A DNA stretch of 64,000 nucleotides from Pseudonocardia sp. HH130630-07 (GTDB lineage: Bacteria; Actinomycetota; Actinomycetes; Mycobacteriales; Pseudonocardiaceae): the NCBI RefSeq assembly GCF_001698125.1, contig NZ_CP013854.1, positions 1,116,001 through 1,180,000 on the forward strand, given 5' to 3'. A program made the position numbers and the translations under genes. This document shows, in pieces, positions 3,439 through 41,199 of the stretch. Within the stretch, counting starts at the first letter, position 1. Each line of letters starts with the position of its first letter. The notes under the pieces were generated by a model. The model made no database searches. It was not told the origin of the DNA and saw only the letters and a program-made list of their open reading frames with translations.

Positions 3439-3485
3439 GTACCAGCCTGCTCACCCCATCGCGAACCCGGAACGGAGAGGGCCCG

Positions 3486-7886: not shown

Positions 7887-7917
7887 TACTTTCCCGGTCC
7901 CGGGATCGGAGGAGCCG

Positions 7918-8220: not shown

Positions 8221-8224
8221 GCGG

Positions 8225-9105: not shown

Positions 9106-9489
9106 TCACCGGATCCTGGCACGCTCACGGGATCGGGTGAGCGCGGACCGGACCCGTGAGCGGGGAGCGGACGGCGGGCCGGTCGAGACGGGGGTACGGG
9201 CGTCGAGCAGTTCGGATGCCAGTGCGGCGGCGTCGCGGTCGTGCGCGGCGGCGTCGTGGGGGCGCGGGAGGCCGCGCGGCGCGGCCGGGCGGTGGAACCG
9301 GTGCTCGTGGCCGAGCACCCGGCCCGGCCACGACGGGTCGAGCCGCCGCCGGCGGAGCAGCCGGGTGATCTCGGTGAGCATCTGCGCGGTCAGCACGGTC
9401 CGGCCGTCGTGGGTGTGCGCGACGACCTCGTCGAGCAGCGCGGCCGGGACGCCCGCGGCGACCAGCTGCTCCGCGGGGAGGACCGTCAT
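9106..9489 (-). CDS. Tail of the giant gene, or small coupled ORF
   Basis: 127 codons from ATG 9487-9489, which overlaps the TGA of the giant frame (9486-9488) as ATGA. Codon bias is good to about 9200, and the product contains a helical stretch ending in LTAQMLTEITRLLRRRR. Coding character extends upstream of the ATG in the same frame (LGPPIGAELPGVPAGS), where the giant frame turns Ser/Pro/Arg/Cys-rich. So this is either a coupled small gene or the true C-terminus of the giant protein after one more single-base frame change near 9527-9550. No recognised domain. Confidence 0.5.
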   Translation of the reverse strand: MTVLPAEQLVAAGVPAALLDEVVAHTHDGRTVLTAQMLTEITRLLRRRRLDPSWPGRVLGHEHRFHRPAAPRGLPRPHDAAAHDRDAAALASELLDARTPVSTGPPSAPRSRVRSALTRSRERARIR

Positions 9490-12100
9490 CGATCCGGCGG
9501 GGACGCCGGGCAGCTCCGCGCCGATCGGGGGTCCGAGGTCCCGGGTCCGCTCGGCCCGGTGATCAGCACCTCGTGCTCCGCGCGGGTCAACGGGCGCAGC
9601 GAGACCGGGCCGCTGCTGACCGAGGAGTAGCCGGTGCTCGCCTCGACCGCGGGCGGCCCGTCGCCGGGGCCGGCCGGTGCCGGGGCGGGACCGGCCGGGT
9701 CGAGAGCGACCGGTAGGCCGCGCCGGGCCAGCGCGTCCCGGACGACCGCGGCGAACGGCCCCCTGCCCGCCGCGTGCAGCCGGCGCAGATCGGGAAGGTG
9801 GTGCGCGGCGGCGGCGAGCAGTTCGGGGGGCAGGCTCGCCAGAGCTGCGGCGTACCCGCCGTCGCGGACGCCGTGCAGGGCACCGTCGGGGCCGGCCCGC
9901 GCCCGGCCACCCCCGGGCAGCTCGACGACGACCGGGCGCCCGGACCCGATCGCGGCCCGCCGTGCGTCGGTGAGCTGCCCGGCCGTGCCCGGTGCGCCCG
10001 GGCCGGGGCCGGCGGGGTGGGGGGCGAACGGCGAGGCGTGGCCGTGGCCGGTGCGCAGCCGCCAACCGCCGTCGTCGCGGGCCGGGGTCTCCTGGGCGGC
10101 GAGGGCTGCGGTGAGGTCGCCGTCGAACAGGGTCAGGTACGCGGTGCCCCGGTCCCGGGCGGTGACGGTGCGCCGCACCGCCGGCTCGTCGCGGTACCCG
10201 GTGAGCGTGCCGCGGCGGAGCTCGACGACCAGGCCCAGCTCCGTGCGGGCGGTGCCGCCCTTCCCGGCGAGGATCAGGGTCGTCTCGGCGCGGGTCCCGG
10301 CGACCGCGGCCCCCCGGTGCCCGGACTGGTCACCGCCGGAGAGCCCGATCGATCCGGGTTCCCCGGCCAGCGTCGCGCCGCGGCCGACCGGGGCCATGCG
10401 GGCGTCGGAGGTGCCGGTGGTGGTCTGCTCCTGGAACCGGCGCACGGTGCGCTTGTCGAGGTCCCAGCCGCGGAGCAGCCGCTGTGCGCCGTACAGGTCG
10501 GCGCGCACCACGACGTCGACCACGGTGCGCCCGCCGGCCGGGATCCGGTGGAACAGGTGTCCCTCTCCGGTGAGCATGTCGCGCAGGAAGGCGGTGAGCG
10601 CGTTCGCGGCGAACACGTGCTCCAGGTCGGCGCGGTGGTCCTCGGCGCGGGTGCGGCCCAGCATGCCGCGGGCGGCGAGCGCGTCGACGACGGTGTCGAC
10701 CAGGCCGGGGGCCTCGACCGCCTCGGCGCTGTAGACGCGCGGCAGGACCAGCGGGCGCGGGTCGGCCGGGCCGTCGCCGTCGGACCGGGCCTGCGTGCCC
10801 GCGACCCGGTCACCGGCGGGGACGGGTGTGGCGATCCCGGCGGGGACGAGGCGGACCAGGCTGCCGTCGAGCACGACGCGGGTGGGGGCGGCGGTGCCGC
10901 GGTCGAGCAGCCCGCCACCGGCCCGGGCGGTGACGGTGATCCGCACGCCCTGGGCGATCCGGTCGGATCCGCCGAACGACGCGGTGCCGTCGAGGCGGGT
11001 CCGCTGGGTGCTGATTCCGCCGGTGGCGCCCCGGCTGTGGTCGGTGGACACCGACGGGACGAGCCCGGCGCCGCCGTCCCCCGGCGCGAGATCCACGGTG
11101 GTGCCGCCGCCCGTGGTGCGCGACCACGATCCGCTCCGGTCGTGCTGCAGGTAGCCGTAGTCCTGGTTGATCTGCCCGGCGGCGGTGGTCGAGTCGAGCA
11201 GGCGGGCGTCGTCGACGAGCCGGGCGGTGATCCACACCTCGATGCGGCGGAGGCGGTCCGCGCCCGGCACCGCGACGCCGCCCGGGCCGATCTCGGGGAT
11301 CCGGACCGTGGCCTGCAGGCTGAACCCGTCGCGGTCCAGCATGGCGTCGAGCTTGCCCCACCAGCGCTTGCCGGCCAGGTTCTTCCACAGCTGCTGCCAC
11401 AGCAGCGGGTCGTGGGCCAGGGTGCCGGGCGGCAGCTGCGCGGCGACGGCGTCGCGGACCTGGGCGAACAGCCGGGCCGGGGCCCCGGCCGGGGTGCGTA
11501 GCGTCGCGGTCTCGATCGACGACTGGCCCAGCCGGGTCGCGAAGGGCTCGGCGAGGCTCACCCGGACCTCCTGCGCGACACGGGCGAGACCGGCCCGGAT
11601 CCGTCCGTCCAGATCGTGGTGCGGCAGCGCCCGCGCGTCGCCGGAGAGTTCGCCCAGGCGGGTGCTCACCGCGTCCCGGGTCCCGGCGGCGAGTCCGCCG
11701 CCCGTTCGGAGGTAGCGGTCGAGCAGGCGGTGCACCAGGGCGTCGTCGATCGCGAGGTCGCCGTGGGCGAACCGGACGACGACGTCGTGGACCTGCGCGG
11801 CGGGCAGGTCCCAGTCGCCGCGGCCGTAGAGGTCGATGGCGGTGCGCTCGGGCAGCGCGAACACCACCCGGGCGCCGTGCACCGCGGCGGGGGCGCCGCC
11901 GCCGACGGCGAGGCCCATGTCCAGCGGCGCGGTGTAGAGGTAGTGCAGCCCGGTCTCGATGGTGAGCCGCTCGCGGCCCCAGATGCTCAGCCAGGACCGG
12001 TTCCGGCCGCCGTCGACCGAGCGCGACCCGTTCGGGCCGGCCGGGCCGATGGTGAGCCCGCCGTTGACCGAGCCGGAGCCCGAGGTCGCGGCCTTGGCTG
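9486..12100 (-). pseudogene. Giant gene segment 8: beta-rich modules, C-terminus
   Basis: About 871 codons (reconstructed residues 8380-9250). Alternating helical linkers and beta-rich modules with long runs of alternating polar/hydrophobic residues, for example GGVAVPGADRLRRIEVWITA, and Gly/Ser/Thr turns. Modules resemble those in the preceding segment, so the C-terminal third is built by internal duplication. The last 120 codons are Gly/Pro/Ala-rich. No Cys/His catalytic cluster, nuclease or ADP-ribosyltransferase motif was recognised at the end. The frame is entered through a frame change near 12090-12108, where the upstream frame has one extra base. Confidence 0.75.
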
Positions 12101-14570
12101 CCGCGGCTGGCCAGCGTCAGGTTGATGTCGCCGGTGACCAGCGCGGACACCCCGGCGAACCGGGCCCCGCCGAGCCCGGCGGACAGCTGCACCGAGGTCC
12201 GGCGGTGGCGCAAGCCGCGCTCGCGGACCGCGACCGCGGTGCGGTAGTCCTCCTCGAGCAGCTGGCCGAGGTGGGAACGGACGCCCTCGACCCCGAGGAG
12301 CTCCCGCAGGTGCTGCCCGGCCGGGGAGTCCGGATCGTGCGCGCGGCCCAGCGTGGCGGCGGCGACCGCGTCGAGGTCACCGGTCTCCAGCGCGAGCGGG
12401 GTCATCCGCTGGCGCACCACCTCGGGCACCGCCTGCGCGGCCCCGCCGGCCACACCACCGGCCGGGTCGGCGGCGGGCAGCCAGTCGCTGGGCAGGTACA
12501 CCGTGGCCCGCCCCGGGGCCGACGCCAGCGGGGTCGCGGTGCCGCCCCGCCCGAGGCGTTCGACGACGACCCGGTGGGTCAGCGCGAACGCCGCGGTCGT
12601 CGTCGTGGACTCCACCAGGGGGACCTGGTTGACCGTGTCCGCGATCGAGATGCCCCAGCTGCGGCCCCGTGACCCCCCGGCGCCGACGGTGATCCCGGAC
12701 AGCCGTCCCGCGTTCAGCTTCCACGACGCCGAGACGCCTACCCGCGCCGAGCGTGACCCGCCGCGGGAACGCCCCGAGGTGTTGGACCCGATGTCGAGCC
12801 CGACCAGCGTCCACCGCGTCGAGTGGCCCAGCCAGCGCATCCGGTCCCAGTCGGCGTCGACCCGCACCCGCAGCGTGACGTGCTCGGGGCCCTGCAGCCG
12901 GCGGTAGCGGCGCAACGAGATGACGATGCCCTGCTGGGCGGCCTGGTCCAGGCTGCCCGCGATCCGCTCGTCGGTCAGCTGCTCGGCGACCTCGGTGGCA
13001 TTCGCCCACTGCACGGCCAGCTCGTCGCGGTCGGCCGTCCACCGGTTGTGCGCCGCGGCGGGCAGCAGGCCCTCGGCACGCAGCTGCGCGGTCACCCGGG
13101 CCCGCAGCTCCGCGGCCCCGGTCAGGTCCCGGACCAGGCCGTGCCCGACCCCGCGGACCTGCCCGATCCCGGTCCCGATGAACGACGGCTGCACGGCCCG
13201 CCGTCCGGGCGGGGCACTGCGGCCGAACTGCTCGCGCAGCACCGGCCCACCGGCCCGGTCCCGGCGCACCGCCGTGGTGTCGACCTCCATGCCGTGGTGG
13301 AAGGCGGCCGCCTCCGGCATCCGGACCAGCATCGTGACGTCGCCGGTGACCGGGTCCGGGGTTGCGGCTGTCCGGTCCAGCCAGGTGATCGCGACGCTGT
13401 AGCGCAGGCCGAGCAGCTGGGCCTGGGTGTAACCGGAGTAGCGGTGCACACCCGGGTGGATCGCGTCGCCACCGGCGTTCGCCCCCACCGACCACGACCG
13501 GGATCCGCCCAGGACGCCGCCCGCCTCGGCCCCGAGCCGCGCGATGACCCACCGCAGCGCGGCAGGCACCCAGCCGGAGACCTCCCCGCCCAGGCTGCGC
13601 CCGGACGACCAGGACCCGGACGCCTTCGAGAACGCCACGTGCAGGTCCTCGAGATGCTCCTTCGTGCTGCGCGTGCCGAACGCCCGGCTCGACCCCAGCG
13701 TCGCGCGCACCGTCAGCACGGCCAGCGGGCGGCCCCGGTCGTTGGACAGCACGGGCTGCCAGCCCTCCGGGGCGTCGAGCAGCGTCGGCAGCCGCGACGG
13801 CGAGCCGCCGACCAGCAGCGTGCGCAGCTGCTCGCGGGTGGTGGTCCCGATCCCGCCGTGGCGGCCCAGCTGCTCGGCGACCCGGTCGGTGAGCGCCTGC
13901 AGCCCGTCGGCCCAGATCGGCGCCGCCAGCGGCAGCGTCTCCTGCGTGCGGGGGCCACGGATCCGCTGCGGCGGGCCGCGGGCCTCGTAGGTGTGCGGGA
14001 TCCAGGACCGCACCACCGCCCCACCGGTGTCCACCCGCACGGCCTGCGACCACGCCGGACCCCGGTCCGCGCGCCGTACGGCCGCCTCCCAGTGCCCGCT
14101 CGTCTCCACCAGCACCGACGTGCCCCGGTTGTCGACGACGCCGCCACCGACCATGAACCCGGCCGCGCCGCCGGCCAGCGACTCGGTGCGGCCCGCGGTC
14201 GCACCCAGCCCGAGCGCCCCGGCCGCGCCGCCGACGTTCCCGGACAGGGTGCGGGCGACGGTCGCGGTCACCGACCCGCCGGCCTGGGTCAGGTCCCCCA
14301 GTATCAGCTGCGAGGCCTGCTCGGTCACCTCGACCACCTCGACGCTGCGCCCCGGCACCCACCGCAGCGACAGCTCGACACCGCCGCCCACACCCAGCAC
14401 CAGGCCCTCCGCGCCGACGGCCGAACGCCACCGCGCGGTCACCAGGTCGTCGAGATCCTGCCCGGACAGCCGCACCGCCGCACCGGACTCGGCCAGCAGA
14501 TCCGCGACCGTGGCCCGCAACCCGGCCAGCCCCGGCAACGCGTCGGTGGGCACCCCGGCCGGCAGCGCGG
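12101..14570 (-). pseudogene. Giant gene segment 7: beta-rich repeat modules
   Basis: About 823 codons (residues 7556-8380) in a frame offset from both neighbours. Begins LPGLAGLRATVADLLAESGA and continues as repeated units, each with a helical half (for example LRAEGLLPAAAHNRWTADRD) and a beta half rich in Gly-Ser (for example SRSARVGVSASWKLNAGRLS), usually ending in a leucine/proline motif such as VYLPSDWLP. The same module type recurs in segment 8. Strong codon bias continues across both bordering frame changes, so the changes are recent or sequencing artefacts. Confidence 0.75.
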
Positions 14571-17436
14571 CACGGTGTCGGCCAGCGCCACGTCCAGCGC
14601 CCGGACCGCGGCCACGGCCCGCGCCGCTGCGTCGCCGGCCTGCGGCGGGGTCGGTTCCACCGCCCGCAGGCCGATCCCGAGCGCCTCCAGCGCGGCCCGG
14701 GCATCCTCGGCCTTCTCGGCCGCGGCCCGGTAGGCCCGCTCGGCCCGCTCCAGCCGGGCCCGCCGCTCGCCCGCCTCGACCACCCCGGCCCTGGCGGCGC
14801 GGCGACGCTCGGCGGCGTGGCGGTCGGTGCGCTCACGCGCGGTACGGGCGGCGGCGACCAGGTCGTCGATCTCGGTCGCCACCGCACGGACCGCGTCCCG
14901 CTTCACCCCGGCCCGGTGGGTGAGCTCATCGTGCATCGCCGTGAACGTGCGGGTCAGCTCGGCGACCGCGCCCGGCCGGTCGCCGTCCACCGCGTCCGTG
15001 ATCTCCCCGGCCACCGCGTCGAGATCGCGGTGCAGGGCCGCCCGGCCCAGCAGCTCCCCGGTGACCGGGCCGCTCGCCAGTACCTCGCCCACCACCCCGG
15101 CCCCGGCGCCGGTGAGCTCCACTCCGGTCAGCGCGTCGAGGCCCCCGTTGGCGGCCAGCACCAGGTCCGCGACGGCGACGGCCGCGGCTGCCCGGGCATC
15201 GCCCTGCACGTGCAGCACGCCGAGCGCGTCCAGCACCCCGGCCGCCGCCTGCCCGCGGGCCAGGCCCAGGTGCGCCCCCCACCAGGCCACGACCTCGGCC
15301 CGCACCTGCTCCGCCGGCGCACCGGCCGCGACCCGCCCGTCGATCACCGCCACCTGCTCGCGCAGGTCGGCCGCCGTGACCCGGACCCGCAGCCCGTCCG
15401 GACCGTCGGCGACCAGACCGCCGCGGCGCCACACCGGACGACCGACACCGAGCTGCTTCCCGGCCGCCAGCACCTCCCCCAGAGCGGCGTCGCGGCCCGC
15501 GGCGAGTACCCGCTCCCAGCCCAGGCCGTCCCTCAGCGCCGGTGCGACCCCGGCGTCCAGCGCGGCGTCCAGCGCCGCGGTCAGGTCCCGCTCCGTCTGC
15601 TCCCGCCCCGCGCCACCGGGCCAGGTGTCGGCCCGGGCGAGGACCGCATCGGCGACCGCGCGCCGCAACGCCGCCCGCTCGGCCCGGTCGGCCCGGACCT
15701 GGCGCAGCCGCTCAGCCGGGGTGCGGCGCCCGTCGACCGCCCGGGCCGTGTCCGCCGCGGAGAACCCGGCCAGCAGCGCGCCGTTCTGCGCCGCGGTGTG
15801 GGCGGCGACCATCGCCGACCTGGCCCGCTCGGCCCGCTCCCGCGCGGCGCGGATCTCCTCCGGCGCCGCGCCGGCGGCCAGCCCGTCGAGCTCGGCGGAC
15901 GCCGCCCGGTAGGTGTCCCGGGCCGTGCCGAACGGCTCGAACAGCATCGCCAGCCGGTGCCCGTCGCGCAGCCACAGCGGCAGCCGCTGCCACGCCCGGG
16001 GCACGGCCACCGCACGGGCCGCGTCCCGCATCCCGGCGCCGACCAGGTCGGCCAGTTCCATCGCCGACCACTCAGCCGGGGCCGACGAACCGAGCACGAC
16101 GCCCGGGTTGCGCAGCAGCGCCCCGGTGTAGTCCATCGGGGTCACACCGAGCAGCTCCGCCGGCCGGTACCCCGCGCCGTCGGCCACCAGGAGACCGGCC
16201 GCCGCCAGCTCGCCCAGCACCCGCTCCAGCTCGTTCTCCCGTCCCGCGCCCCGGGCCGGCGACAACGCCGACAACCAGGCCGGGACGTCCGCAGCCGCCG
16301 GACCGGCCAGGTCCGCGGCGCGCAGCGGGCCGCGCGCCGGTGCGTGCAGCCAGAGTCCCCACAACAGCCGCCACACCGTCACCGGGTCGATCCCCGGCGC
16401 GGCGACCGCGACCGCCGGCGGCACCGCCAGCCACCGGGTCCGGTGCCGCTGCGCCACCCGCGCCGTCACCGCGGCCCGCCGCGCCGACGCCACCAGGCCG
16501 CGCAGGGTCGCCGCGCTCGCCGCACCCAGCGCGGCGCCGGCCCAGAGCGAGCCGCTCAGGACGCCCACCAGGACCGGGAGCCCCGCCAGCGCGATCCCGC
16601 CGAGGACGGGCGCGCCGGCGAGGACCCGCAGGCCCGATCCCGGCCGCCCGGGCAGCGCTGCGCCCCGGGTGGCCCGCCGGGTCGCGCCGTCACCCGCGGC
16701 GGCCCGGCCGAGCAGGCCCCGCCAGTGACCGTCCGCCCGGATCCCGGCGGCCGCGACCAGCCGCCGGTGCCGCTCGGCCGCCCGCACCGCGTCGTCCCCG
16801 GTCCTGGCGTGCGTCACCCGGTGCGCCGAGCGGGCCAGCCAGTACGCGTCGCCCACTGCGCCCGGCAGCCGGGCCCCGGCCCCGACCGACAGCCGGATCC
16901 CGATCCGCAGGTCACGCAGCAGCAGGCCGACGGCGCCACGGAGCCGCGGTGCCCCACCGGTGGCCGGGGACCCGGACCGGAGACGACCAGCCGCGGCGAC
17001 CGCGTCGCCGATCCCGCGCACCGTGACGGCCAGCGCCGTCCGGACGCCCCGCACGGCACCGCGCAGGCCCGGGAGCAGGACCCGGCCGTGGGACACCAGC
17101 AGCAGGACGGCGACCGTCCCGCCGACCAGCCACGCCGGAGGTCCCGGTCCGTGGTCCGGCGGCACCGGGACCGCGAGCGGACCGGCGTGTGCCGGGACCG
17201 CGCCGACGCCGAGGAGCACCACCACGGCTGCGGCGGCACGCGGCAGCGCCGCCCGGGCCCGGCCCGCGACGGCCCGCAGGGCCACCGGCACGGCCGCCGC
17301 AGCGGTACGCAGCCACGGCGCCGCCCGGCCCTCGGACACCGGGCGCGCCGGAGCCTGCGACGCCTGCGGTGCCGCGCCGTCCGGCGCGGGTCGCGCCGGA
17401 CCGTCGGGCGCGGGCCGGGACCCGTCCTGCCCGGTA

Positions 17437-18172
17437 CCCGGCCCGACCCGGACGAGGACGACCGTCTTGTTGCCGCTGCCCAGGCCCTGGACCCGGTCGA
17501 TGATCCGGTCCGCGGCCGCACCGAGGTCGCCGACGGCGGCCGTCGCGAGGTCGTCGCGGTTCGGGTGCTCGGCGCGGTCGGGGTAGAAGTCGTGCAGCTC
17601 GTCGGTGCTCAGCAGCAGCGTCGCCGGCCCGTCCGCGGTGACCGTGACCGTGGACGGCGCGAACCGGGTCCCCTGCCCGACCCACCGGTCGACGTACTCG
17701 ATCCGGGCCTCGTGCGGCGTCGTCCCGTCCGGGGCGGCCAGCGTGGTGAAGGTGTGGTCGGTGGTGATCTGCTCGACCCGCCCGTCGGCGTGCACCAGGT
17801 AGCCACGGGTGTCCCCGGTCCAGGCGACACCGATCCGCCCGGTGGCCGGGTCGGCCACGGCCAGCAGCAGTGTGACCATGCCGGGCCGCTTGCGGAGCCG
17901 GTCCCGGGCCGACTCGAACGCCGTCCGCGCCGCGTCCCCGACCGGCAGCCGCGGGTCGGTGGCCAGCAACGCCTCCAGCGCCACCGCGACCGCCCTCGCC
18001 GACGCCGTGTCCGCCGTCGGGCTGACGCCCAGCTCGTCGGACAGCACCGCGAACCGGCGCCCGTCCGAGGCCCGGACCGCGCCGGCCATCGCGTCGCGGT
18101 TGGTGGCCTGATCGGGGTGCCCGGCGTCGGTGCGCCCGGCCATGGCGCCCAGGTCGAACCCGACCCGGCCGG
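17437..18172 (-). other. PP2C-type phosphatase-like domain in the giant protein
   Basis: The order of PPM/PP2C motifs is recognisable: GRTDAGHPDQATNRDAM (motif normally RxxNQD), AVLSDELG (normally VxDGMGG), WTGDTRGYLVHADGRVEQIT followed by DHT (normally GDSRxYL...DH), LLLSTDELHDF (normally LCSDGL), and NKTVVLVRV at the end (normally DNxTxxVV). The metal-binding Asp of several motifs is kept but neighbouring Gly residues are replaced by Glu-Leu, so activity may be altered or lost. Such domains reverse Ser/Thr phosphorylation; finding one inside a giant membrane-associated protein is unusual. Confidence 0.6.
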
Positions 18173-20066
18173 TCCCGCCCCGGACCGGCAGCGGCCCGGC
18201 CCGGCGGCCGCCCTCGGCCAGCTCCTCGGCCGCGACCAACCTCGGCGTGGTCGGCGAGGTGACCGCCACCGGATCAAGCCTGCTGCCCGGGGCCTCCTGC
18301 ATCGCGGCCCGCCGGCCCAGGTTCACCGCCAGCGCGTCCCGGGCCCGGCCCCAGCCGTGCACGAGACGGGCCACCCGCAGCGCGCCGAGCGGCGAGTACG
18401 CAGCGCCCGACCGGAACAGCGCGTCGATCCGGGCGTGGTGGCGCAGCGTCAGCTCCTGCTGGGCCGCGATCGCCCGGTCCAGATACACCAGGCCGCGCTG
18501 GCGCCGGCTCTCCAGGTAGCCGCGGTGGCGCTCGGAGATGTCCCGGGGCACCAGCCGCCGCACCAGCGCGGCGGCCGCCGTCCGCACCCGGCGCGGGACC
18601 ATCCGGGCCGGCCCTGCGGCCAGCCACCGGCCGAGCGTCGCGCTGCCCTGCGTCGTCATGTCGAACTCGGTCGTCGAGACCGCACCGGCCACCGGGTCGC
18701 GGCGCTGCCAGGTCTGCCTGGTCAGCGCCGCCCGGTACTCCGCGATGTTGGGCAGCAACGCCTCCCGCGGGCCGACGCCGACGCCGTACTGGGTCTGGGA
18801 CAGCCCGGCGGTCCACTTCAGCAGCCGCAGGTCCCGGGCCCCGATCCAGTTCCGTACCTGCAGCCACGGGTTCCACCGCTGCCACCCGGCCAGCGCCGGC
18901 GGGTCGAACCGCTTGACCGCCTGGTTGCCGGGCACGTCGAAGTGCAGCGCGAACAGCTCCACCCGGACCGGGCCGAGGTAGATCTGCAGGCCGTAGCGGA
19001 GGAACGGGACCGCCCCGACGCTGCGGTTGTCGCTGGTCGTGGTCTGCAGCGGCCGCCCGACCTCGGTGACGTCCAGCACCGTGAACGACCCCAGCGAGCC
19101 GGCCGTGACCTTCAGCCCGGCGCCGAACACGCCTCCCCACTCCGGGCCGATCGGCGGAGACATCACCGGCAGCCCGGTGAAGGCGCGGTTGAACTTCATC
19201 GTCCGCCAGCGCTGCCACAGCGGCGGGAGCCTCCCGTCGCCGGTCTTGCGCAGCTTCAGGTGCACCAGCTGGGTCAGCCCCTGCCAGTTGAGCAGCCACA
19301 ACCCGGCCCACAGGATCGCCGCCGGGGCCATCCCGGACAGCACCAGCGGCAGCGCGACGACCGGGTAGACCAGCGGGTAGCTCAGGAACGTCGGGTAGAA
19401 GCGGTGCTCCACCCCGAACGGCGTCCACATGCGGGCCCCGATCGTGATCGCCGCGACCGTCAGCACCGCACCCGCGGCCGCGACGACGCCCGACCCGGCC
19501 AGTGCCGCGACCGTCCCGGCGACGGTGCCGACGGCCGCGGCCACCGTCACCCGGGTCCGCCACGACCCCGGCGGCACCGCCCGCCGCCAGCCCAGGTCGG
19601 CGATCCCGTCACGGACCGTCCGCCCGGCCCGGAGCACCCCGCCGCCGAGGCGCCGCAGCGACTCCGCGACCCGCGAGAGCCGGGTCGGGCCGTCGGCCGC
19701 CACCGGCGGCGGCGCCACGAGCCGGACCAGGGCGGTCGGCGGCAGCACCGAGTAGCGCAGCCAGGACCCGACCGCGGCACCGGCGACGACCGCGGCGTCG
19801 CCGACGACGGCCGCCGTCGCCCCGACCGCGTCGCGCCCCGCCGCGACCGCCCGGCCCAGCGCGAACCCGATCCGGCCGACGGCGCCGAGCACCGCCAGCG
19901 CACCGGTCAGCGCCGCGCCGAGCACGACCGTCCACGGCGGACCCCGGGCCGGGGCCGGTCCCGGCTCGGACGGCGCCGGAGGTTGCGGCGCGACCGGGGA
20001 CACCGGCTCGGCCGGGGTCTCGGCCCGCGGCGGCTCCGGACGCTGCGGCCCGCCCGGCGCCGGGCG

Positions 20067-20238
20067 CAGCTCGGCACCCGGGATCCGCAGCACCGTGCCC
20101 GGCCGGATCAGGTCGGGGTTCGCGCCGATCGTCCGGCGGTTCGCCGCGTAGAGCTCCGTCCAGCCGCCGCGCACGTCCTGCTCGCGGGCGATCCGCTCCA
20201 GCGAGTCACCCGGGCGGACCGTGTACGACACCTGGTTC
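20067..20238 (-). other. LysM peptidoglycan-binding domain in the giant protein
   Basis: YTVRPGDSLERIAREQ followed by WTELYAANRRTI, NPDLIRPGTVLRIP is a clear single LysM motif of about 55 residues, which binds N-acetylglucosamine-containing glycans such as peptidoglycan. It directly follows a hydrophobic signal-like helix (VTAAVTATLVLGLAGDAFG), so it should face outside the membrane. Confidence 0.8.
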
Positions 20239-23200: not shown

Positions 23201-23452
23201 CGCGCATCCAGTCCATCCGGGCCACGGCGTCGACGTGGCCCTGGCGGGCCCGCCCGAGCTCCTCGTTCAGTGCCCGCCGGGCGTCCATCGCCCGTGCGTC
23301 CTCCGGGTCCGGCGTCCCTCGTCCGGCCTGGGCCTCGAGGTCGCGGACCCGCTCTGCTGTCTCGCGCACGCGGTTCGCCTGCGCATCGAGTGCGTCGTCG
23401 CGTACGACGCGCACCGTGCCGCCGCCCGGGGTCTCCGGGCGACCGTCCTGGG

Positions 23453-28178: not shown

Positions 28179-31100
28179 GCGACGGTGGTCGACCTGCAGT
28201 CCCCGCCACGGCAGACCGCACCACCGCCGGGCCCGTAGTTCATCCCGACCTGGCAGCCGTCGGCACTGGTACCGGCCTTGCAGCTGGTCGAGTTGCCGTA
28301 CGGGTCGGTCCACGTCTGGGTGGCGTCGGAGTCGCCGAGGAAGACGACCGACGCGGTCTCCGACGGCGTCTGCCCCTCCCGGACCATCGGCTCGACGATC
28401 CGGCAGTTCGGGCAGTTCTGCTCGCGGACCTGCGCCCAGTCCGGCCGGGTCAGGGTGCAGTCGCCGACACAGCTGATCCGGCCGCCGTCGCCGTTCGCGT
28501 CCGGGGTCGTCACCTGGATCCGGTTGCTGCCCCCGGAGGTGATCTGCTCGGGAAGGTTCACGCCTGCCGCTGCGGCCTCGAGGCGCTCGCCGTCGGTGAA
28601 CGTGTGGACCTGCCGGCCCCGGTCCTGGCCGATCCGGTAGCCCTCACGCAGCGCGATGTGACCGGTCTCGGACTCGCCGAGGCTGTACTGACCCGGGTTC
28701 CCCTCGCCGTCGCGGCTGATGATGGTGGTGACGTTCCTGCTCGGGTCGAACGCGACGCCGTCGGAGTGCACGACGTCGCCCTCGGCCGAGGTGAAGGTCC
28801 CCTCGCCCTGGAAGGTGATCCGCGCGGGGTTACCGGCGCCGTCGCGGCCGGTGATGTCGCCCGAGGGGCCCTTGACCTCCAGGTGGTCCCGGCCGCCGCT
28901 CTCCGGGACGCCGCCCCCCTGGGTGGGGCCCTGGTAGTCGCAACCGCCGTTGCAGGTGCTGTGCACCGGCGAGCCCTTCGGGCTGCTCGTCCGGAACGAG
29001 TTCTGCATCTCGGCCGGCTTGCGGCCCTCGGAGTTGGTGTAGCGCACGGTCTCGCCGGTGCGGCCGTCGCGCATCCGGCCGGTACCGCGGACCCAGCCCG
29101 AGCCGTTGCCGTCGGCGTCGCGGTGCAGCCCGACGCCGTGCGAGCCGGCCACCGTGTCCTTCTCCTCGGCCTTCCGCTCGATCGGCACCGAGCCGTCGAA
29201 GCCCTCGCCCGGGCGGTAGCGGACGGTCTCGCCGTCCTCGGTCGTGAGGGTGGCGCCATTCGCGCAGCCGTCCCGGCAGGTCTCGGTGGTGACCTCGTCG
29301 TCGCCGGAGGACTTGACGCTCAGGACGGGGTTGCCGTCCTCGTCGAACCTCCCCTCGATCCCGCGGTCGTTCTCACCCATCTCCTCGATCGGGATCGGCT
29401 TGCCGTCCGGCCCGAGCTCCTCGGCCTCCTGCTGCTGGGCGGCGGCCTGGTCGCGCAGCGAGGGAGCGGTGACGACGCCGGTGTTCGAGCCGCTCTGGGT
29501 GAAGTTCGCGCAGTCCCCGGAGCAGGTGGCGCCACCGCCGCCACCCGGACCGGCCACGGCCCACGCGGAGACCCCGCAGCCGCCGTTGCCGCTGCCCGAG
29601 CAGGTGCCCTCGCCGTGCGCCTTCCAGGCCAGGCCCGGCTGGTCCCAGCTGGGTGCGGTCTCGGCGCTGTCGTCGGCCTCGGCGTGTGCCGAGTAGCTCG
29701 ACGAGCAGTTCGCCGCGCCGGAGCAGGACGCCGACGCCGACGCCTGCCCCGGGCTCGCCGACACCGACACCGACACCGACACCCCACCGCCACCCTGCCC
29801 ACCACCACCGGACCCCGACGCCGACGCGCTGGCCTGTGCCCCCGGAGCGGACGCCGACGCGCTCGAGGCCGCCGAGTAGGAGTGCCGGCAGTTCGCCGCA
29901 CCCGAACACGACGCCGACGCCTGCCCGGGACCCGCGACGGCCTGCGCGGTGACCGCGACCCCACCACCACCCGTGCCACCCCCGCCGGTCCCGGCCGCCG
30001 ACGCCGACGCGGTCGACCCACCAGCCGTAGCCGAGTCGCTGACCTGCGCGGAGTAGGAGTGCCGGCACGAGGTACCCGCACTACCGACACACGACGACGA
30101 CGCCTGCGCCGCCCCACCACCGGCCGCCGCGGCCGCACTGGTCTGGACGAACCCCGACCCCCGGCCACCGGACCCGTACCCGGCCGCATCGGCCTGCGCG
30201 GCCGCCCCGGCCGTAGCCGTACTGGACGCGGAGTAGCGGTAGGAACACCCCGACCCGGCGCTGCCCTGACACGCCGCGGCGGCGATCGCCCCGTCCGGGC
30301 GGGCCTGCGCGGACGCGGTGGTGGCACACCAGCCGCTGCCCGCTCCGCCGGCGGCCGAGCAGCGGGCCGAGGCGTCGGCCCGGTTACCCGGCGCCCGGTC
30401 CGACGCGGTCGAGCCCGCGGAGTAGGAGTGCCGGCAGGTCGAGCCCTCGGTCGCCGCGCACACCGCGGAGACCTGCGCCCCGTCGGTGGTGGCCCCGGCC
30501 TGCCCGCCGCCGCGGCAGGCACCGTCGGCACCGGCGACGCACGACGTCGTCGAGCGTGCGGCGTTCCCGCCGGCGTCGGCGACCGCGTGGGTGCGGGTGC
30601 GGCACCCCTCACCGGTGCACTGCGCGGTCAGCTCGGCGTTGTCCCGCGCGGTCGCGCCGCCGGTGGCGACCTCACAGGCCCCCTGCCCGCCGCAGGTCGC
30701 GGTGGCGATGCCGTGGGCGAGCCCGTCGCGCGGGGCCACCGAACCGGCCCGCAGGTCGGGGGCGATCGTGGTGGGGTCGTCGGTGCTGAGCGTGGTGCTC
30801 CGTCCGCGCACCGGGCAGTCGGAGTTCCCGGAGCGGCAGGTCCCGGACGCGCCGGCGGTGCTCGCCCCGGTCGCGTCCGCGCCGGTGCCCGACAGGGTCA
30901 GTGATCCCTCGGTGCCGACCACGGCACGGCAGCTCTGGCCGTCGCCGTCGCAGCTCGTGGCCGACCCGGCCAGACCGACGGTCGCGGACCGGCTCTCGAC
31001 GCGGGGGACCTCGATCGCGTCGAGGGCCTCGCGGGCGTTCCGGGCCCGGGCAGCGGCGGCCGCGGCCTCGGCCCGCCCGGTGGCGGCGGTCGCGGCCCGT

Positions 31101-34100
31101 TCGGCGGCCACCGCCCGCCCAGCGGCCACGGCGGCCGCCCGTCCGGCGGCAGCGTCGGCCGCCCGCTCGGCGGCCGGGTCGCCCGCCGGCGCGCCGGCGG
31201 CATCGGCCGGGTCGGTGGCCCGCGCTCGGGCCGACTCGGCGTCAGTACGGGCGGACTCGGCCGTCTTCTCCGCGGCACGGGCCGCCTGCTCGGCGGCGCG
31301 GGCGGCCTCGTCGGCGGCGCGGACGGCCTCGTCCGCGGTGGCCTGGTCGCGGCCGGCGCGGGCGGCGGCGATCGCGGCGTCGGCGTCGCCGTCGATGACG
31401 GTGGCCGAGACGGTGTCGGCCGACGCCGCACCCCGGCACGAGCCGTCGGGGCAGTCCAGGGCGGCGGTGGCGTTCGTGGCGCCGCTGCGGGTGCCCTCGA
31501 TCGTCGGGTCGGTGACCGCCGACGCCCCGGCCTGTACCGCGCACCCGCTGTCACCGGCGGTGCAGGTGGCGCGGGAACGGGAGTCGGAGACGGCGTCCCC
31601 GGCCGGGGTGGTGGAGCGGGCCTGCCCGGTGACGGTGGCGGTGCAGCCGGTCCCGGCGCACTCGCCGGAGGCCTGGGAGTCGCTCGTCGCCGCGGAGGCG
31701 CCTTCGATCTTCGAGCGGGCGCTCTTCTCGGCGGCGGTCGCGGTCTTCTCCGCGGTGGTCGCCGTCGTCTCCGCGGCCGTGGCGGCCTGCTCGGCGGCGG
31801 CCTGCTCGGCGGTCGCGGCGCGGCGCTGCTCCGATGAGGCGAACGGGTCGTCCTCGACACGCTCGGCGTGCTCGGCGGCGGCGTCCGCGGTCTCGCGGAG
31901 CCGGTCGGCCTCGTCGGTGGCGGTGTCGGCGTCGGTGCGTGCGGTCTCGGCGGCCGCGCGACGCTGCAGGACGACGACGTCGGCAACGACCTGGCCACTG
32001 CCCGCAGTGGAGCTCGTGGTGCCCCGGCATGCGGTGCCGGTGCTGGTGCAGGTGCTGGTCGAGGAACTCGCATCGGCCGGGGGGCCGCGCGCACCCCGGG
32101 CACCGACCTCACGACCGGTGTCCTCGCTACCGGAGGCCGAGCTGCGCACCGTGCCCCGGCAGGGACCCTCCCCGCCGGCGCAGTCCAGGACCGCGGAGGC
32201 GTTCGTCCACGCCGAGGCACCCGACACACTCGGGGCGGCGTTCGCACCCGCGCCCGGCGACCCGGCCGGCAACGTCGCCGGAGGCTGCTCGCCCTCATCC
32301 CGCGCCTCGTCGCCCGGACCGGTCGGCTGCCGGTCGGAAGCCTGCTCGCTGCGCCCCTGATAGACCGTGGCGTTGCTGCTCGAGTGGCCCTCGACCAGGG
32401 CGGCGATCACCGAGGCGTCCGGACCGGCCGAGCCGCCGGAGTTGCTGACCGCCCGGCACCCGTCGGCCGCACCCTCACACGACCCCGACCCGTGCGAACC
32501 CCGACCCTGACCGCCGTCGTCACCCGACGCGGCGCTGCGCACCGTCCCGTCACAGGACGCGCCGGCGGCGCAGTCCAGCGCGGCCCCCGACGCCGACGCC
32601 GCGGACGCCCCGGCCTGCTGCGCCTTCGGCGTCTGGGCGGGGTCGGCGGACAGGGTCCGGGCCGCACCGGGGCCGGTGGAGGCGACCGAGGTCGTCTGCG
32701 GGGAGCAGCCGCCGCTGGTGCCCGTGCACGACGCCGACCCGGTGGTGGTCCTCGGCTTCCCGGTGGCGGGATCGTGGCTGGTCGCGGTACTGGTCGCCGT
32801 ACCCGAGCACTGCGCACCGGCCGCACAGTCCACCCGCGCCGAGGACGTCGAGATCGCCGACGGCCCCGTACCCGGCTTCTCCCCGGGCAGCGTCCGTTCC
32901 GGACCGGACGAGCCCTGCGAACGGGTCTGGGCGTGGCAACCGCCGCCGGTCACGGTGCAGGTCGCGCCACCGGTGCTCGTCTTCGCCCTGCCGCCGTCGA
33001 CGTCCGCGTCGGCGCCGGTGACCGTGCTGGTGACCTTCCCGGAGCAGTTCTCGGCGCCGGCGGCGCAGTCGGCGGTGCCGGTCACGTCCGAGGTGCTGGA
33101 CAGTCCGGCCGGGACGTCACCGGTGGCGGCGCGCGCTCCGGTCTGCGCGGTCGAGGTGCTCTCGCACGTGCCGGCGGTGGTGGTGCAGGTCCCCGAACCG
33201 GTCGCGGTCTTCAGCGTGGCCGCGGTGACCTTCCCCGTCGCCGGGTCGGTGACCCGGTCCCCGGACCCGGCACTGCTCGTGGACGAAGCGCCCTTGCCGG
33301 TGCAGCCGGTCGTACCCACCGAGCAGTCCACCCTCGACGACGCCCGGCTACCCGAATCAGCCGCGTCACCGGTGTCGAGACCGGCGAACCCGGTGCCGGG
33401 AGCCCCGTCCGGGGGCGAGGCGTCCGAGGAGCTGCCCGCGGTGCACCGGCCGGCCTCGGCGGTGCAGTCCGCCGCACCCGACGTCGTCCGCACGACCGGG
33501 GCGGTGATCGCCTTCGTGCCCGCGGCCCCGCTGGTGGCACCGGTGCCGGCGGTCGCGGGCGTCGTGGCCTCGGTGGTGACCGGGCGCTCGCCGGCGGCCT
33601 TCGTGGTGCTGCGGCCGGTGCCGGTGCAGCCCTCCCGACCGGCACAGTCGACGACCGCCTCGGCCTGGCTACGACCCGCACGGTCGGCACCGGCGAACCC
33701 GGACCGGTCGCGGGAGGCCGGCCCGCCCGGCTCCGACGCGCTGCGGGCCTGGCAGCCACCACCGGTGACCTCGCAACGCGCGGTACCCGCGGTGTCGCCC
33801 TCCGCCGGCGTCACCCCGGCCGGGGCCTGCGCGCCGGTCGCGGACGTGCCCGCCGCCGGGGTCGTGCCGGTCGACGGGGTCGTGCCGGTCGTCGGGGTCG
33901 TGCCGGTCGTCGCGGCCTTCGGGGACGTCGCGGTGGAGGTCTCGACCTCACCGCCGGTCTCGACCGAGGCCTGCCCGGTGCAGCCGCGCTCCACGGCGCA
34001 CTCGACCGCGCCGTTCGCCCGGGCCGGGGACCACTCGTCGCCCGGGGACGCGGTGAGCCGCAGCCCGCAGCCCTCGGCACCGGCGGTGCACGACGCCGAC

Positions 34101-35006
34101 GCCGACGCCGTGCGCTCCGGCTCCGACGCCGCGGCCGGCCCGGCGCCGGCACGCTCGGCGGAGACCTGCCCGGTGCAACCGGCGCCCGTGCAGTCCGCCC
34201 CGGCACCCCGCTCGCCCACCGTGGACCCCAGACGGCAGTCACCCTCGGCGGTGTCGCAGGAGGCGTTCGCGGTGGTCGTCGCGCTCTCGCCGCCCGGACC
34301 GGTGGTGGGGCGCTCGCCGGTGGTGCTGGTGGCGCAGCGCGGGTCGGAACCGGTCAGCGTGCACGACGCGGACGCCTTCTGCTTGCCCTCGCCCGCGGTG
34401 ACGCCGCAGGAGGACACCCCGGCCAGCGCCCGGCAGTCCTCGGTGTCCCGGCGCTCGGCCACACGGTCGTCACCGAAGGCGCCGTCGTACCCGGCGGTGC
34501 GGACACGGTCGTCACGCCCCGCGCCGGGCTCGGCGGGATCACCGGGGGCGCGGGCGGCGCAGGAACCGAACGCCCCGCTGGTGGTGCACCCGGCCGCGGT
34601 GTCACCGTCGAGATCGACGCCGGTGTCGTGACCCGACGCCGCGGCGAGCCGGTCGGTGTCGTCGTAGACCTCGGCGGCGCGGTCGTCGCGGGCGGCCTCG
34701 GCCTCGTCGTAACGGGCCTGGGACAGGGTGCCCGCCTCGACCTGCTTGCGCTGGGAGGCGAGCTTCTCGTCGGTGGCGGTGAGGTCGCGGTGACCGTCCA
34801 CCACGTCGTTGACCAGCGCGGCGCGCTCGGGGGACAGGGCTGCGGCGTCGTCGTCGACGCGCTGCTCCAGTTCACGCTGCTCGGTCTCGGCCTCGGTGTA
34901 GGAGGCCTTCGTGGCGTCGCCGGAGGCGACCTTCTTCTTCGTCGCCGCCAGGTCCTTGCGGCCCTGCTCGACGTCCAGCCTGCCCTGCAGGACGCGGTCG
35001 GTCTGC
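28179..35006 (-). pseudogene. Giant gene segment 3: coiled coil and Cys-pair repeats
   Basis: About 2,276 codons (residues 1059-3335). The first 120 codons after the IS1380 site are a charged coiled coil (DVEQGRKDLAATKKKVASGD). Then comes the Cys-pair repeat region (29480-34600) broken by two Ala-rich helical stretches (about 31030-31400 and 31690-31980). The final 400 codons are beta-rich with Asp/Gly turns (for example RITFQGEGTFTSAEGDVVHS) and a few more Cys pairs. Composition is Ser/Thr/Ala/Gly with many cysteines, which suits an exported, disulfide-stabilised stalk. Confidence 0.8.
29480..34600 (-). repeat. Cys-pair repeat region (more than 30 units)
   Basis: Degenerate units of roughly 25-50 residues, each with two cysteines about 4-7 residues apart. 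Two flavours alternate in the first part: V/LDCAxGxxCxGT and ASCTxTxGGCxxxT, separated by Ser/Thr/Gly-rich spacers. Towards the C-terminal end (29640-30120) units become nearly identical, for example ASASCSGAANCRHSYSA preceded by GSGGGGQGGGGV. The even number and regular spacing of cysteines suggests small disulfide loops in an extracellular fibre. I know no named family for it. Confidence 0.75.
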
Positions 35007-36754: not shown

Positions 36755-37338
36755 GGAGTCGGAGTACCAATAACCGTCGTCGCTCGGGGGGCCGCGGCCC
36801 TCGACGGTCAGCTCGTCGCGACCGTCGCGGACACCGTCGGAGCAGCCATGGCCGTCGCAGCCACGGCCGAGACGGGCCTGCGGAGTCTCGCCCAGCAGAT
36901 CGGTCGCCGGGCCGTCCAGGCCGGCACCACCGCGGTCCTCGTCCGCCGATCCCGCGGAGAGCCGATCGCGCTCACCCGAGCGCGGCACGAGCACACCCTC
37001 CGGGCTGCGCTCGCCCGGGAACTCCCGAGCGTGCTGCGGAACACCGTCGCCGGCCGCGGCCAGGAGCTGCTCGGCCAGCCGCAACCCCGCATCGACCGCG
37101 CCCCGAGCCACCTCCAGCACCGCACCCACCACGGGACCACCGTGGCGCCCGGCCCCGGATCCGGCCCGCTCGAACGCCCCGTCCGCCGCGTCACGCACCT
37201 GCGCCAGAGCCTGACGGGCCTGCCCCCGACCCCCGGGTGAGGCCCCACCCACCCGCTCGGCCGAACCCTCACCCAGCACCAGCGACCGGCCCTCGCTCCG
37301 GGCGTCCTCGACCGCGTTCCGAACGGCCTCGCGCAGCG
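36750..37338 (-). pseudogene. Giant gene segment 2, between two IS elements
   Basis: About 196 codons (residues 863-1058) stranded between the IS3-like and IS1380 elements. It reads SLREAVRNAVEDARSEGRSL, then Ala/Gly/Arg-rich helical sequence and ends GYWYSDSSD at the IS1380 site. Frame and composition match the flanking segments on both sides once the IS are removed. Confidence 0.8.
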
Positions 37339-37387
37339 ATCTGCGGTTCCCCCATGATCGGGGAGGCATCAGCTATAAGGGGTAGCG

Positions 37388-38583: not shown

Positions 38584-38612
38584 GAACCCTCCACGATCTC
38601 GGGGGAACCGCA

Positions 38613-41199
38613 ATCCGCTCGCCCCAGACCCGTCCCGGGCCCCACGGCCCAGATCCCGGGCCCGGTCGGCCCACTCGGCCCGGTCCGCCTCGACGCGCCC
38701 GACCAGATCGGCCCGATCGCCCCGCTCGACACCGGCCCGCTCGACACCGGCCCGCTCGACACCGCCCCGCTCGGCCAGATCCGCCCACTCGGCCCCGTGG
38801 AGACCCGTCCGATCGACCGGATCCAGCCGACCGCCACGGTCGGCGCGGTCGGCGCCGGCCAGATCCGCACCCGTGCGCTCGGCCACCCGGCGCCACGACT
38901 CCCGACCCTGCAGAACCTGCCCGGCCGCACCACCCGCGACAGCCCGCTCGACCAGACGCTGCAGCGACTCCCGACCGTCACCGGCCCGCTCCCAGCGGTC
39001 CGCGTCCAGCCCGGCCCGGCGCAGAACGTCCAGGACCCGCGTTCCGGCCGTCCCCGCCTGCTCCCCCACCGTCCGGCGTGCCTGCGCCACCGCCGCCCGG
39101 ATCCCCTCCGGCCCGGCCCCACGCCCGACGCTGCGGCCACGGTCGAGGACCGCGCGCTCGACCACACCCGCCAACCCCGTCGCCAGACCGGTCACCGGCT
39201 CGACCCCGGCCCGCCGGGAACCGGCCACGACCCGCTCGACCGAGCCGTCCCGCTGCCGATCAGAGACCTGCTCCCCGACCGCGGTGAACGCCTCATCGGT
39301 CACACCACGCACACCCGCCAGCGCCCGCCGCAACTCCGACCGCACCCCGGAGCCCGACACCACCCGCTCCGCCACCGCGCCGCCACTCCCGAGCACCTGC
39401 CCGGTGACCTGCCGCGCCCGCTCCAGCACCTGCGTCGACCCGACCGTGTCCCCGGCGCCGCGCCGCAGCTGCGCGACGAGCGCACGCTCGAGCTCCGCGA
39501 CCGACCGTCCGGACACGTCCCCGCCCCGCTGCGACACCGCGCCATCCACGGCGGTGCCCTCCGCGGTCGCTGCACCCGCCGCATCGACCGCCCGCTCCAC
39601 ATCGCGTCCCGGCACACGCTCCCGGACGTCCACAACGGTCGACCGGGTCCGCTCCACCGCGTGGCCGGCGATCTCGCGCCCCATCGCCGGTGCGCTTCCG
39701 CCGGTGACGTGGGCCCGGTCGAGGATCTGTCGCACCATGGCGCGCACCTGGTCCGCGGGGACCTCACCCGGCCGCTGCGCGGAGCCGCCCACCCGATGCG
39801 CCGCCAGTACGTGCTCCACGCGGTCCCGGGTCTGCGCGCCCGCCTCACCGGCGATCCGGTCGACACGGTCCATGGCCCGCTCCGCGGACCGCAGCGCCGC
39901 CCCCGACCGCTGTGGGTCGGAGTCGTGCACCCCGTGCCGCTCCGCCGCGGCACGGACCGGCGCCACGTCCCGTCCTACCCGCTCCACGACCCGCCGGGCA
40001 TCGGCCCCGCCGGCCTCGGTGGACAACCCGGCCGCCCGCCGGGTCGCCCGCTCGGTGATCGCGCCGGCCGTCTCGTGCGCGACGGCGGTCCTCGCCCGGG
40101 CGATCTCCCCGGCCGATTCTGCTGCCGCGGCGGCCTCGTCGGCGACCTTCCGTGCGGCCGCCGTCTTCTCGACAGCGGTCTTCTCCACGGTCTTCCGGGC
40201 GGCGTGCTCGTGCACGGCGGAGATCTGCTCGGGCACGGCCTTCCCAGCGGCGTCAGCACCAGCCGTCGTGGCCGCGATCGTGGCCGCGGCAATCCTCTCG
40301 GCAGCCTTCCCGGCCTTCCGCGCGACCTTCTCCTGCGCGGCGGCGACCTTCTTCTCCACAGCCCGCTCAGCGGCGGCGACCTTCTTCTCCGCGGACTTCC
40401 GCGCAGCGGCCGCCTCCTTCTCCGCCTTCTCCGCGACCCGATCCGAGGACCCCGCACGACCGGAGGAACGCTCACCGGAACGCGACGACGCGGAACGCTT
40501 CGGCTGCGCCCCGGAACCGGACCGCTCGGCCCGCTCACCCTTGCCCCGCTTCGAACCACCCTCGGACGTCCGGACGCGATCGGACTTCTCCCCGCCCGAC
40601 TTCCCACCACCGTCGGATTTCCGGGAACCGCCCGACGACGCCGAGTCACGATCGGACTTCCGCTCACCGCGGTCGGACGCCGTGTCACCGCCCGACTTCT
40701 TCGCACCGCTGCCGGAGCTCTTGGCGCCGCCGGACCTCCCACCACCACGATCGGACTTCTCGCCACCGGACTTCTCACCGCCGCGGGACTTCCCATCGCC
40801 GCGGTCGGCCTTCTCACCGCCGTCGGACTTCTCACCGCCACGGTCGGACTTCTCACCGTCGTCCGAGTTCTTCTCATCGCCGCCGGACTTCTTACCGCCG
40901 CCGGACTTCTCATCCCCGCCGCCGGACTTCTTACCGCCGTCCGACTTCCCGTCCCCGCCACCGGAATCCCCGCCACCGGAATCCTCACCGGAGGAATCGC
41001 CACCGGAATCCCCGTCGGACGAATCAGCCGACGACGCCACCAGCTCGACACCCACCACCCGAGACGATGCCCCGGACGACAGGAACCAGGCGGTCGCGAC
41101 CCCACCCAGAACCACACAGGCGACCAGCGCCGCACGCAACACGACCGACAGGACGACGCCGCAACGGCGCTCCCTGCCCATCGTGAACGTGCGCACCAT
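38613..41199 (-). pseudogene. Giant gene segment 1: N-terminus with membrane anchor
   Basis: 862 codons from ATG 41199, preceded by GGAG at a workable distance; ATG 41181 is an alternative. Residues 13-39 form one hydrophobic helix (VVLSVVLRAALVACVVLGGV), a signal anchor. A long Gly/Ser/Asp/Lys low-complexity stalk follows (units like KSGGGDEKSGG), then Lys/Ala-rich coiled coil (SAEKKVAAAERAVEKKVAAA) and an Arg/Ala/Val-rich helical region with units such as GVERAGVERAGVERG. Ends at the IS3-like insertion. The first part alone could be expressed as a truncated membrane protein. Confidence 0.8.

What the first reader, a model, noticed from the sequence alone, without database searches (positions are those of the whole stretch)
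9486..41199. A single about 9,250-codon giant gene, hidden by three IS insertions
Seen in sequence: three unrelated IS elements each have a target duplication (ATC, TCAGA, CTAG), and removing each element plus one duplication joins long - strand frames with no codon lost. The remaining length from ATG 41199 to TGA 9486 is exactly 27,753 nt = 9,251 codons. The result is a membrane-anchored protein with coiled coils, Cys-pair repeats, heptad repeats, membrane bundles, LysM, a PP2C-like domain and beta-rich modules. I know no described protein with this whole order; an automated annotation would list it as ten or more unrelated hypotheticals. Inference: an envelope-spanning or secreted machine, perhaps a giant toxin-like or adhesion protein.
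Basis: partly seen in the sequence, partly recalled or inferred. Interest (0 to 1): 0.93.

Follow-up and report, generated by a model that had tools for sequence, protein, structure and literature searches.

The report
Giant cysteine-segregated Pseudonocardia surface protein
This stretch is the broken copy of one giant bacterial gene whose uninterrupted relatives, in genomes of the same genus, encode proteins of up to 58,228 amino acids with nearly all their cysteines at one end; the protein is predicted to stand on the cell surface as a stalk that would hold a long tail of enzyme and membrane modules outside the cell.

Summary
Confirmed in essence, with corrections. The three IS elements, their duplications and the frame arithmetic are exact. 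But the 9,251-codon frame is not open: there are five further frame changes, and TGA 9486 is probably not the old end. A congener (G050) carries the same gene as one uninterrupted 8,607-codon frame, which ten window pieces tile in order at 64-89% identity.

It belongs to a family of the window's genus (inferred: Pseudonocardia): 15 of 62 genomes show family frames of at least 5,000 aa, one of 58,228 aa. An N-terminal core recurs (29 of 35 other frames); tails are mosaics with SecA-, MFS-, GGDEF-, PP2C-, trypsin-, HNH-, NUDIX- and HTH-type domains.

Most striking is a cysteine quarantine: median 94.5 Cys, largely in close pairs, in the first 4,600 residues; beyond residue 6,000 only 91 in 234,711, against about 2,065 expected. 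One run of 39,374 residues has none. No other residue is comparably depleted.

Best reading (inferred): a Sec-exported, disulfide-stapled stalk carrying a cysteine-free multi-module tail outside the producer. In this strain the gene is broken.

The parts
38616..41199 (-). Piece 1: start (ATG 41199), hydrophobic signal/anchor about 41107-41163, Gly/Ser/Lys/Asp-rich linker, coiled-coil-like region
   Evidence: tiles G050 protein 24-909, 70% identity
37342..38612 (+). IS3-type element in the gene, duplication ATC
   Evidence: 18 full-length copies (this one included) at rounded 100% identity in the genome. IS-family name from Pfam domains and general knowledge, no IS database searched
36755..37336 (-). 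Piece 2, coding
   Evidence: tiles G050 910-1103, 75% identity
35012..36749 (-). IS1380-type element (transposase 35159-36631), duplication TCAGA
28200..35004 (-). Piece 3: Cys-pair repeat part (81 Cys), predicted disulfide-stapled stalk
   Evidence: tiles G050 1107-3449, 86% identity; a frame change follows near 28.2 kb
27395..28150 (-). Piece 4, coding in another frame
   Evidence: tiles G050 3469-3719, 89% identity; a frame change follows near 27.35 kb
24401..27318 (-). Piece 5: DUF4781-like region (about 26006-26296), then coiled-coil-type repeats (about 25016-25567)
   Evidence: tiles G050 3746-4751, 70% identity
23457..24396 (+). IS5-type element, duplication CTAG
14580..23450 (-). Piece 6: membrane bundles, LysM (20079-20225), weak PP2C-like domain (17472-18065). 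The stretch 17181-20018 is absent, in frame, from the G050 gene. A frame change follows near 14.57 kb
12140..14566 (-). Piece 7: C-terminal beta-rich part
   Evidence: tiles G050 6764-7574, 89% identity; similar to G011 13,818-aa frame; a frame change follows near 12.1 kb
9600..12032 (-). Piece 8: C-terminal beta-rich part, up to the TGA at 9486 in this frame
   Evidence: tiles G050 7612-8425, 85% identity; structure model of poor confidence
9175..9540 (-). Piece 9: probable former C-terminus in another frame (overlaps window ORF 9106-9489), after a fifth frame change near 9.55 kb
   Evidence: tiles G050 8447-8567, 76% identity

Best explanation
This is one giant gene, broken here by three insertion sequences and five frame changes, of a family whose uninterrupted members have a cysteine-paired N-terminal part and an almost cysteine-free mosaic tail; the protein is predicted to be exported by Sec, with the N-terminal part likely forming a disulfide-stapled stalk that would hold the tail outside the producing cell. 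Shown by calls: one continuous frame in a congener, a shared N-terminal core, mosaic tails, the cysteine segregation. Inferred: (1) the signal-like N-terminus sends the chain through Sec; (2) the repeated Cys pairs oxidise outside and stiffen a rod of beta hairpins; (3) the tail has been purged of cysteine because it too passes through or lives in an oxidising space and must not mispair with some 95 stalk cysteines; (4) the tail modules (membrane bundles, LysM, proteases, phosphatases, nuclease, SecA-type ATPase) would act at the wall, at the outer face or in neighbouring cells, and are exchanged in frame between strains. In this strain a full-length product is not expected.
For: Uninterrupted orthologue of 8,607 codons with empty IS sites, all ten pieces in order, dN/dS 0.34-0.82; relative of 13,818 aa with pieces 3-8 in order. 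Core found in 29 of 35 other frames. Cys: median 94.5 in the first 4,600 residues of 30 N-complete giants; beyond residue 6,000, 91 in 234,711 vs 2,065 expected at the control rate of 0.88% and 11 of 30 with none; other residues 0.83-1.53 of control. Same domain type: PP2C segments in giants 2 Cys in 3,097 aa (15 segments), stand-alone PP2Cs 17 in 1,098 aa (4 proteins). Cys-to-Cys gaps of 4-11 residues are 48% of N-part gaps vs 16% under random placement; nine Cys pairs are invariant in a six-sequence alignment of the stalk. Best stalk model: repeated beta strands with Cys pairs around the turns, pLDDT 71.5, pTM 0.54. In the three database members (P0014-P0016) Cys also sits in the N-terminal part apart from 2-4.
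Against: No expression, protein or localisation data. Export alone does not predict Cys loss: 13 signal-only control proteins from the same DNA have 0.98% Cys. SecA-type, GGDEF and FHA modules need ATP, GTP or phosphoproteins, not expected outside a cell. The SecA-like stretches keep 0-4 Cys per about 850 aa. The 58,228-aa protein has about 180 hydrophobic segments by a simple scan, so much of the tail may sit in a membrane and partly inside. Only one of five stalk models reached pLDDT 71.5 (others 55.9-60.3) and the fold search gave nothing significant. The true signal peptide was not tested with a predictor.
Confidence: 0.5

Rival explanations
1. A polymorphic-toxin-type system: a shared N-terminal delivery part with exchangeable C-terminal effector domains used against other cells.
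For: Shared N-terminal core with different tails; HNH nuclease at one C-terminus, DUF3990 with NUDIX at another, trypsin-like domains at three of 20 C-terminal pieces; giant multi-domain actinobacterial toxin-like proteins of over 10,000 aa are described (PMC3482391, passages).
Against: No recurring neighbour that looks like an immunity gene: 13 of 29 frames have a same-strand coding-like ORF starting within 125 nt, of diverse kinds judged by eye; MFS, PP2C, FHA and HTH are not typical toxin domains; 7 of 20 C-terminal pieces matched no family; PADLOC 0 of 6 window pieces.
Confidence: 0.25
2. An envelope-spanning scaffold: N-terminal stalk outside, LysM at the wall, and the enzyme modules of the tail inside the producer as a tethered signalling or metabolic complex.
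For: LysM between hydrophobic segments in the window; many membrane segments; PP2C, FHA, GGDEF, SecA and HTH modules normally work in the cytoplasm (general knowledge).
Against: Cytosolic modules have no known reason to lose cysteine, yet the depletion is general; the PP2C pair control.
Confidence: 0.2
3. Several separate neighbouring genes read by the first stage as one.
For: High GC makes long open frames cheap; the window has long antisense frames too.
Against: One uninterrupted frame in G050 and in many relatives, in the same order, with coding-type codon-position GC and dN/dS below 1.
Confidence: 0.03

Closest known systems
DUF4781 domain-containing proteins of Pseudonocardia (sp. CA-107938, 6,711 aa; P. 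xinjiangensis, 5,196 aa): database names only
   Same: Same family: found by the conserved core; same placing of cysteine
   Different: Uninterrupted and shorter; the CA-107938 protein also has SecA domains, which were not found in the window; no function described
Gigantic actinobacterial multi-toxin proteins (polymorphic toxin survey, PMC3482391, passages read)
   Same: Over 10,000 aa, many domains in one chain, actinobacteria
   Different: Those combine ADP-ribosyltransferase, lethal-factor-like, caspase-like, OTU and MCF1-SHE domains; none of these was named by Pfam in the pieces scanned here, apart from DUF3990 (its relation to ADP-ribosyltransferases is recalled, not looked up). Their sequences were not compared
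Giant ORFs of Omnitrophota (PMC10066038, passages read; 39,678 aa in V. archaeovorus)
   Same: Single frames of tens of thousands of codons, many membrane helices, proposed surface role
   Different: Another phylum; described as having few annotated domains and poor conservation; no Cys segregation mentioned in the passages read. Not compared by sequence

Membership tests
Giant DUF4781 family of the window's genus (defined here) | Collinear N-terminal core | tested here: met
   Pieces 3-5 match 29 of 35 other frames, 28 of them in two or more collinear blocks (chains are built collinear, off-chain hits were not shown)
Giant DUF4781 family of the window's genus (defined here) | Cys-rich N-part, Cys-poor tail | tested here: met
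   Window piece 3: 81 Cys; pieces 6-8: 1 Cys in 4,637 aa vs 41 expected
Giant DUF4781 family of the window's genus (defined here) | One uninterrupted frame | tested here: not met
   The window copy is broken by 3 IS and 5 frame changes; it is a broken member, orthologous to an uninterrupted one
Polymorphic toxin systems | Shared N-terminus with variable C-terminus | tested here: met
Polymorphic toxin systems | Immunity gene directly downstream | tested here: not met
   No common neighbour; diverse or absent. In the window the 128-aa ORF after the TGA is homologous to the relative's own C-terminus
Polymorphic toxin systems | Recognised C-terminal toxin domain | tested here: inconclusive
   HNH 1 of 20, DUF3990 1 of 20, others not typical toxins or none
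Polymorphic toxin systems | Known trafficking domain | tested here: inconclusive
   Pfam and NCBIfam named none in the window pieces or in the N-terminal 2,854 aa of the G011 protein; other N-termini were not scanned
Giant adhesins with repeated adhesion domains | Repeated Ig-like, cadherin, discoidin or similar domains | tested here: not met
   None named by Pfam in the window pieces or in the relatives' parts scanned (one search lists 25 of 27 families)
NRPS/PKS megasynthases | Condensation, adenylation or ketosynthase domains | tested here: not met
   None named in the same scans
IS3-, IS5- and IS1380-type insertion sequences | DDE/rve transposase, terminal inverted repeats, target duplication | tested here: met

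The most novel reading that the evidence does not exclude
A new class of exported mega-proteins: a disulfide-stapled rod carries a cysteine-free 'tape' of up to about 54,000 residues of captured enzymes, proteases, transporters and ATPases, purged of cysteine so that the whole tape can be threaded out of the cell and into neighbours; a single strain can hold at least twelve such proteins of 5,000 aa or more, about 7% of its genome, swapping modules in frame.
Probability: 0.25. Interest if true: 0.96.

Novelty: new variant of a known kind. Interest (0 to 1): 0.84.

Why it matters
Frames of 20,000-58,000 codons in an actinomycete genus exceed the 39,678-aa Omnitrophota ORF of PMC10066038 in the largest case (an 85,804-aa Omnitrophota ORF is recalled, not looked up). 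The near-total loss of one residue across unrelated domain families is a clean evolutionary signal about where such a protein must live, and it can be tested directly. In G012, 14 family frames fill about 7% of the genome, a large investment that the databases name only 'DUF4781 domain-containing' or 'hypothetical protein'. The window copy shows such a gene while breaking down, with a recently multiplied IS in it.

Tried and rejected
Separate-genes reading: contradicted by the uninterrupted relatives. Single open 9,251-codon frame: rejected. Homopolymer slips: no G or C run longer than 6 in the gene, so no obvious cause, but sequencing errors are not excluded. A genome-contig scan with the membrane/LysM region gave 19 Streptomyces loci matching only around the LysM part; not used further. 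A protein search with P0004 found only the window's own protein among 2,726 scored candidates, of limited lengths. Pfam, NCBIfam and PADLOC on the window pieces gave little. Fold search of the stalk: no match with E <= 0.001, best ones beta barrels at very low TM-scores; no conclusion. The beta-module model was too poor to search. DUF4781 outside the genus: 0 of 149 other genomes of the order, 1 weak hit below the cut-off in a 252-aa frame among 295 others of the class; both are samples. C-terminal beta module outside the genus: 1 of 149 (G072, 2,627-aa frame). Literature: searches listed no paper on this family that I could recognise; only their listings were seen apart from the passages named, and the three papers holding 'DUF4781' were seen as listings only. 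The library lacks most subscription papers and preprints.

Full report
Observation. The window is G000:C1:1116001-1180000 of a 6.68-Mb genome in 3 contigs. Three of them are crossed without a break by relatives' proteins; the one near 14.57 kb shows in the tiling of the G050 protein. A fifth lies near 9.55 kb, where G050 reads on into the frame of window ORF 9106-9489. Whether the frame changes are mutations or sequencing errors was not tested; no G or C run longer than 6 occurs in the gene.

One gene. In G050 (same genus) the gene is one uninterrupted frame of 8,607 codons at C1:3586816-3612639. DNA identity is about 75-88% in the main aligned blocks; an ordinary gene of the window (52306-54336) is 80% identical in G050, so the two giant genes are most simply orthologues. 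Ten window pieces, aligned one by one, tile the G050 protein from residue 24 to 8567 in order, 64-89% aa identity, dN/dS 0.34-0.82. The IS sites are empty there. Window 17181-20018, with membrane segments and the PP2C-like domain, is absent from G050 without loss of frame; the LysM just beyond it is not. The flanks differ as far as seen: no match over 100 bp left of window 9175 to the 12 kb fetched downstream of the G050 gene, and none right of 41574, where only about 2 kb had been fetched.

Family. (21 genomes) first showed open frames of 10,474-14,950 aa in G008, G011 and G012. A PF16013 search of 62 genomes of the genus gave 35 places in 17 genomes; 14 of these have frames of 5,000 aa or more, and G008, found with another module, makes 15 of 62. 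I fetched DNA for 25 of the 35 places; nine were left out and one is the window. From that DNA I kept 36 coding-type frames above 1,900 aa after dropping 10 judged antisense; 33 have at least 5,000 aa and 20 at least 10,000; several run off the fetched DNA or a contig. The largest is G012:C3:815157-989843, 58,228 aa, no stop, no N, GC by codon position 0.73/0.50/0.88; its true start is probably some 60 codons further in. G012 (9.6 Mb, 7 contigs, 97% complete, 7% contamination) has 14 of the frames, 222,983 aa in all, about 7% of the genome; four of them are cut by the end of the fetched DNA. In samples outside the genus the family was not seen.

Architecture. The core (about residues 1070-4140 of the G050 protein) was found in 29 of 35 other frames. 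The six without it are the two G053 contig pieces, a G042 fragment and three G012 frames (14,948, 4,675 and 4,479 aa). Two families were scanned at length: the 13,818-aa protein of G011 (DUF4781, SecA, LysM in two pieces, PP2C_2, NUDIX), and 48 slices covering 48,000 of the 58,228 residues (27 families, 25 shown, among them MFS, GGDEF, TauE, Rhomboid, FHA, SecA P-loop, cation efflux, aspartyl protease, GNAT, MarR). Twenty C-terminal 990-aa pieces gave MFS 3, trypsin-like 3 (one below its cut-off), PP2C 2, NUDIX with DUF3990 1, HNH 1, FHA 1, wHTH 1, sigma/HTH 1 (below cut-off), none 7. Motifs: GGDEF is present; GEGKT occurs in 9 of 37 proteins, of which 5 have DEVD nearby and 2 a GR[ST]GR motif; that HNH and NUDIX residues look intact is my reading of the C-termini.

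Cysteine segregation. In 30 N-complete giants the first 4,600 residues hold a median of 94.5 Cys (range 17-111). Beyond residue 6,000 there are 91 in 234,711 residues; expected are 2,065 at the 0.88% of 181 control genes from the same DNA, 1,479 at the 0.63% of 26 multi-membrane controls, and about 1,130 at the 0.48% of the 21 most hydrophobic controls. Eleven of 30 have none; 19 of the 91 lie in the last 300 residues of a frame. Of 67 positions printed (12 frames with most Cys), 54 lie 1-6 residues from another Cys. An earlier count with a data-driven cut gave 157 vs 3,259 in 371,069 residues for all 36 frames. Other residues stand at 0.83-1.53 of control, Trp highest. The longest Cys-free run is 39,374 residues, against 1,076 in the concatenated controls. 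Against a simple 'exported, hence Cys-free' rule: 13 signal-only control proteins have 0.98% Cys, 17 of 181 controls are themselves nearly Cys-free, and SecA-like stretches keep 0-4 Cys. Paired control: PP2C segments in giants 2 Cys in 3,097 aa (15 segments of 100 aa or more), four stand-alone PP2Cs 17 in 1,098 aa. In the window, piece 3 has 81 Cys and pieces 6-8 have 1 in 4,637 residues.

Mechanism. [quoted passage not shown] Daniels 2010, cited there, was not read). A signal-like N-terminus, a long Cys-paired part whose best model is a series of beta hairpins (one of five models) and a purged tail are together best explained if the whole chain leaves the cytoplasm; the tail may have to be Cys-free because it shares a molecule with some 95 stalk cysteines, or because it is threaded. 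What the tail does is inferred from its modules only. The main difficulty is that SecA, GGDEF and FHA modules need nucleotides or phosphoproteins, so either they act inside another cell or part of the tail stays inside. Polymorphic-toxin membership fails on immunity genes; that lowers 'it is one', not 'it works like one'.

Fate in this strain. The IS3-type element has 18 full-length copies at rounded 100% identity, this one included, so its insertion is likely recent. Three insertions plus five frame changes make a full-length product unlikely.

Noticed in passing
window 49446-50863 (-): Cas5-type and Cas7-type (CT1975-like) genes, the latter matching only profile positions 136-342 of 361, next to IS genes: looks like a remnant of a type I CRISPR system.
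   Followed up: no
window 44828-47598 (+): Three successive ORFs with DDE_Tnp_4 transposase domains just upstream of the giant gene.
   Followed up: no
window 1283-4445 (+): Two ParA/CbiA-like P-loop genes about 5-8 kb beyond the end of the giant gene; by eye, ParA-like proteins also follow the giants of G022 and G061 at about 200 nt.
   Followed up: partly
G042:C1:6433726-6475946: Another giant with a frame change: the 11,917- and 2,768-aa frames overlap and one module match passes from one to the other.
   Followed up: partly
G012:C3:815157-989843 and 193044-245822: Two giants with an MFS-type C-terminal part are each followed within 75 nt by similar 230- and 234-aa proteins.
   Followed up: no
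tails of 36 giant frames, pooled: Trp is 1.5 times as frequent in the tails as in control genes, the largest enrichment of any residue.
   Followed up: no
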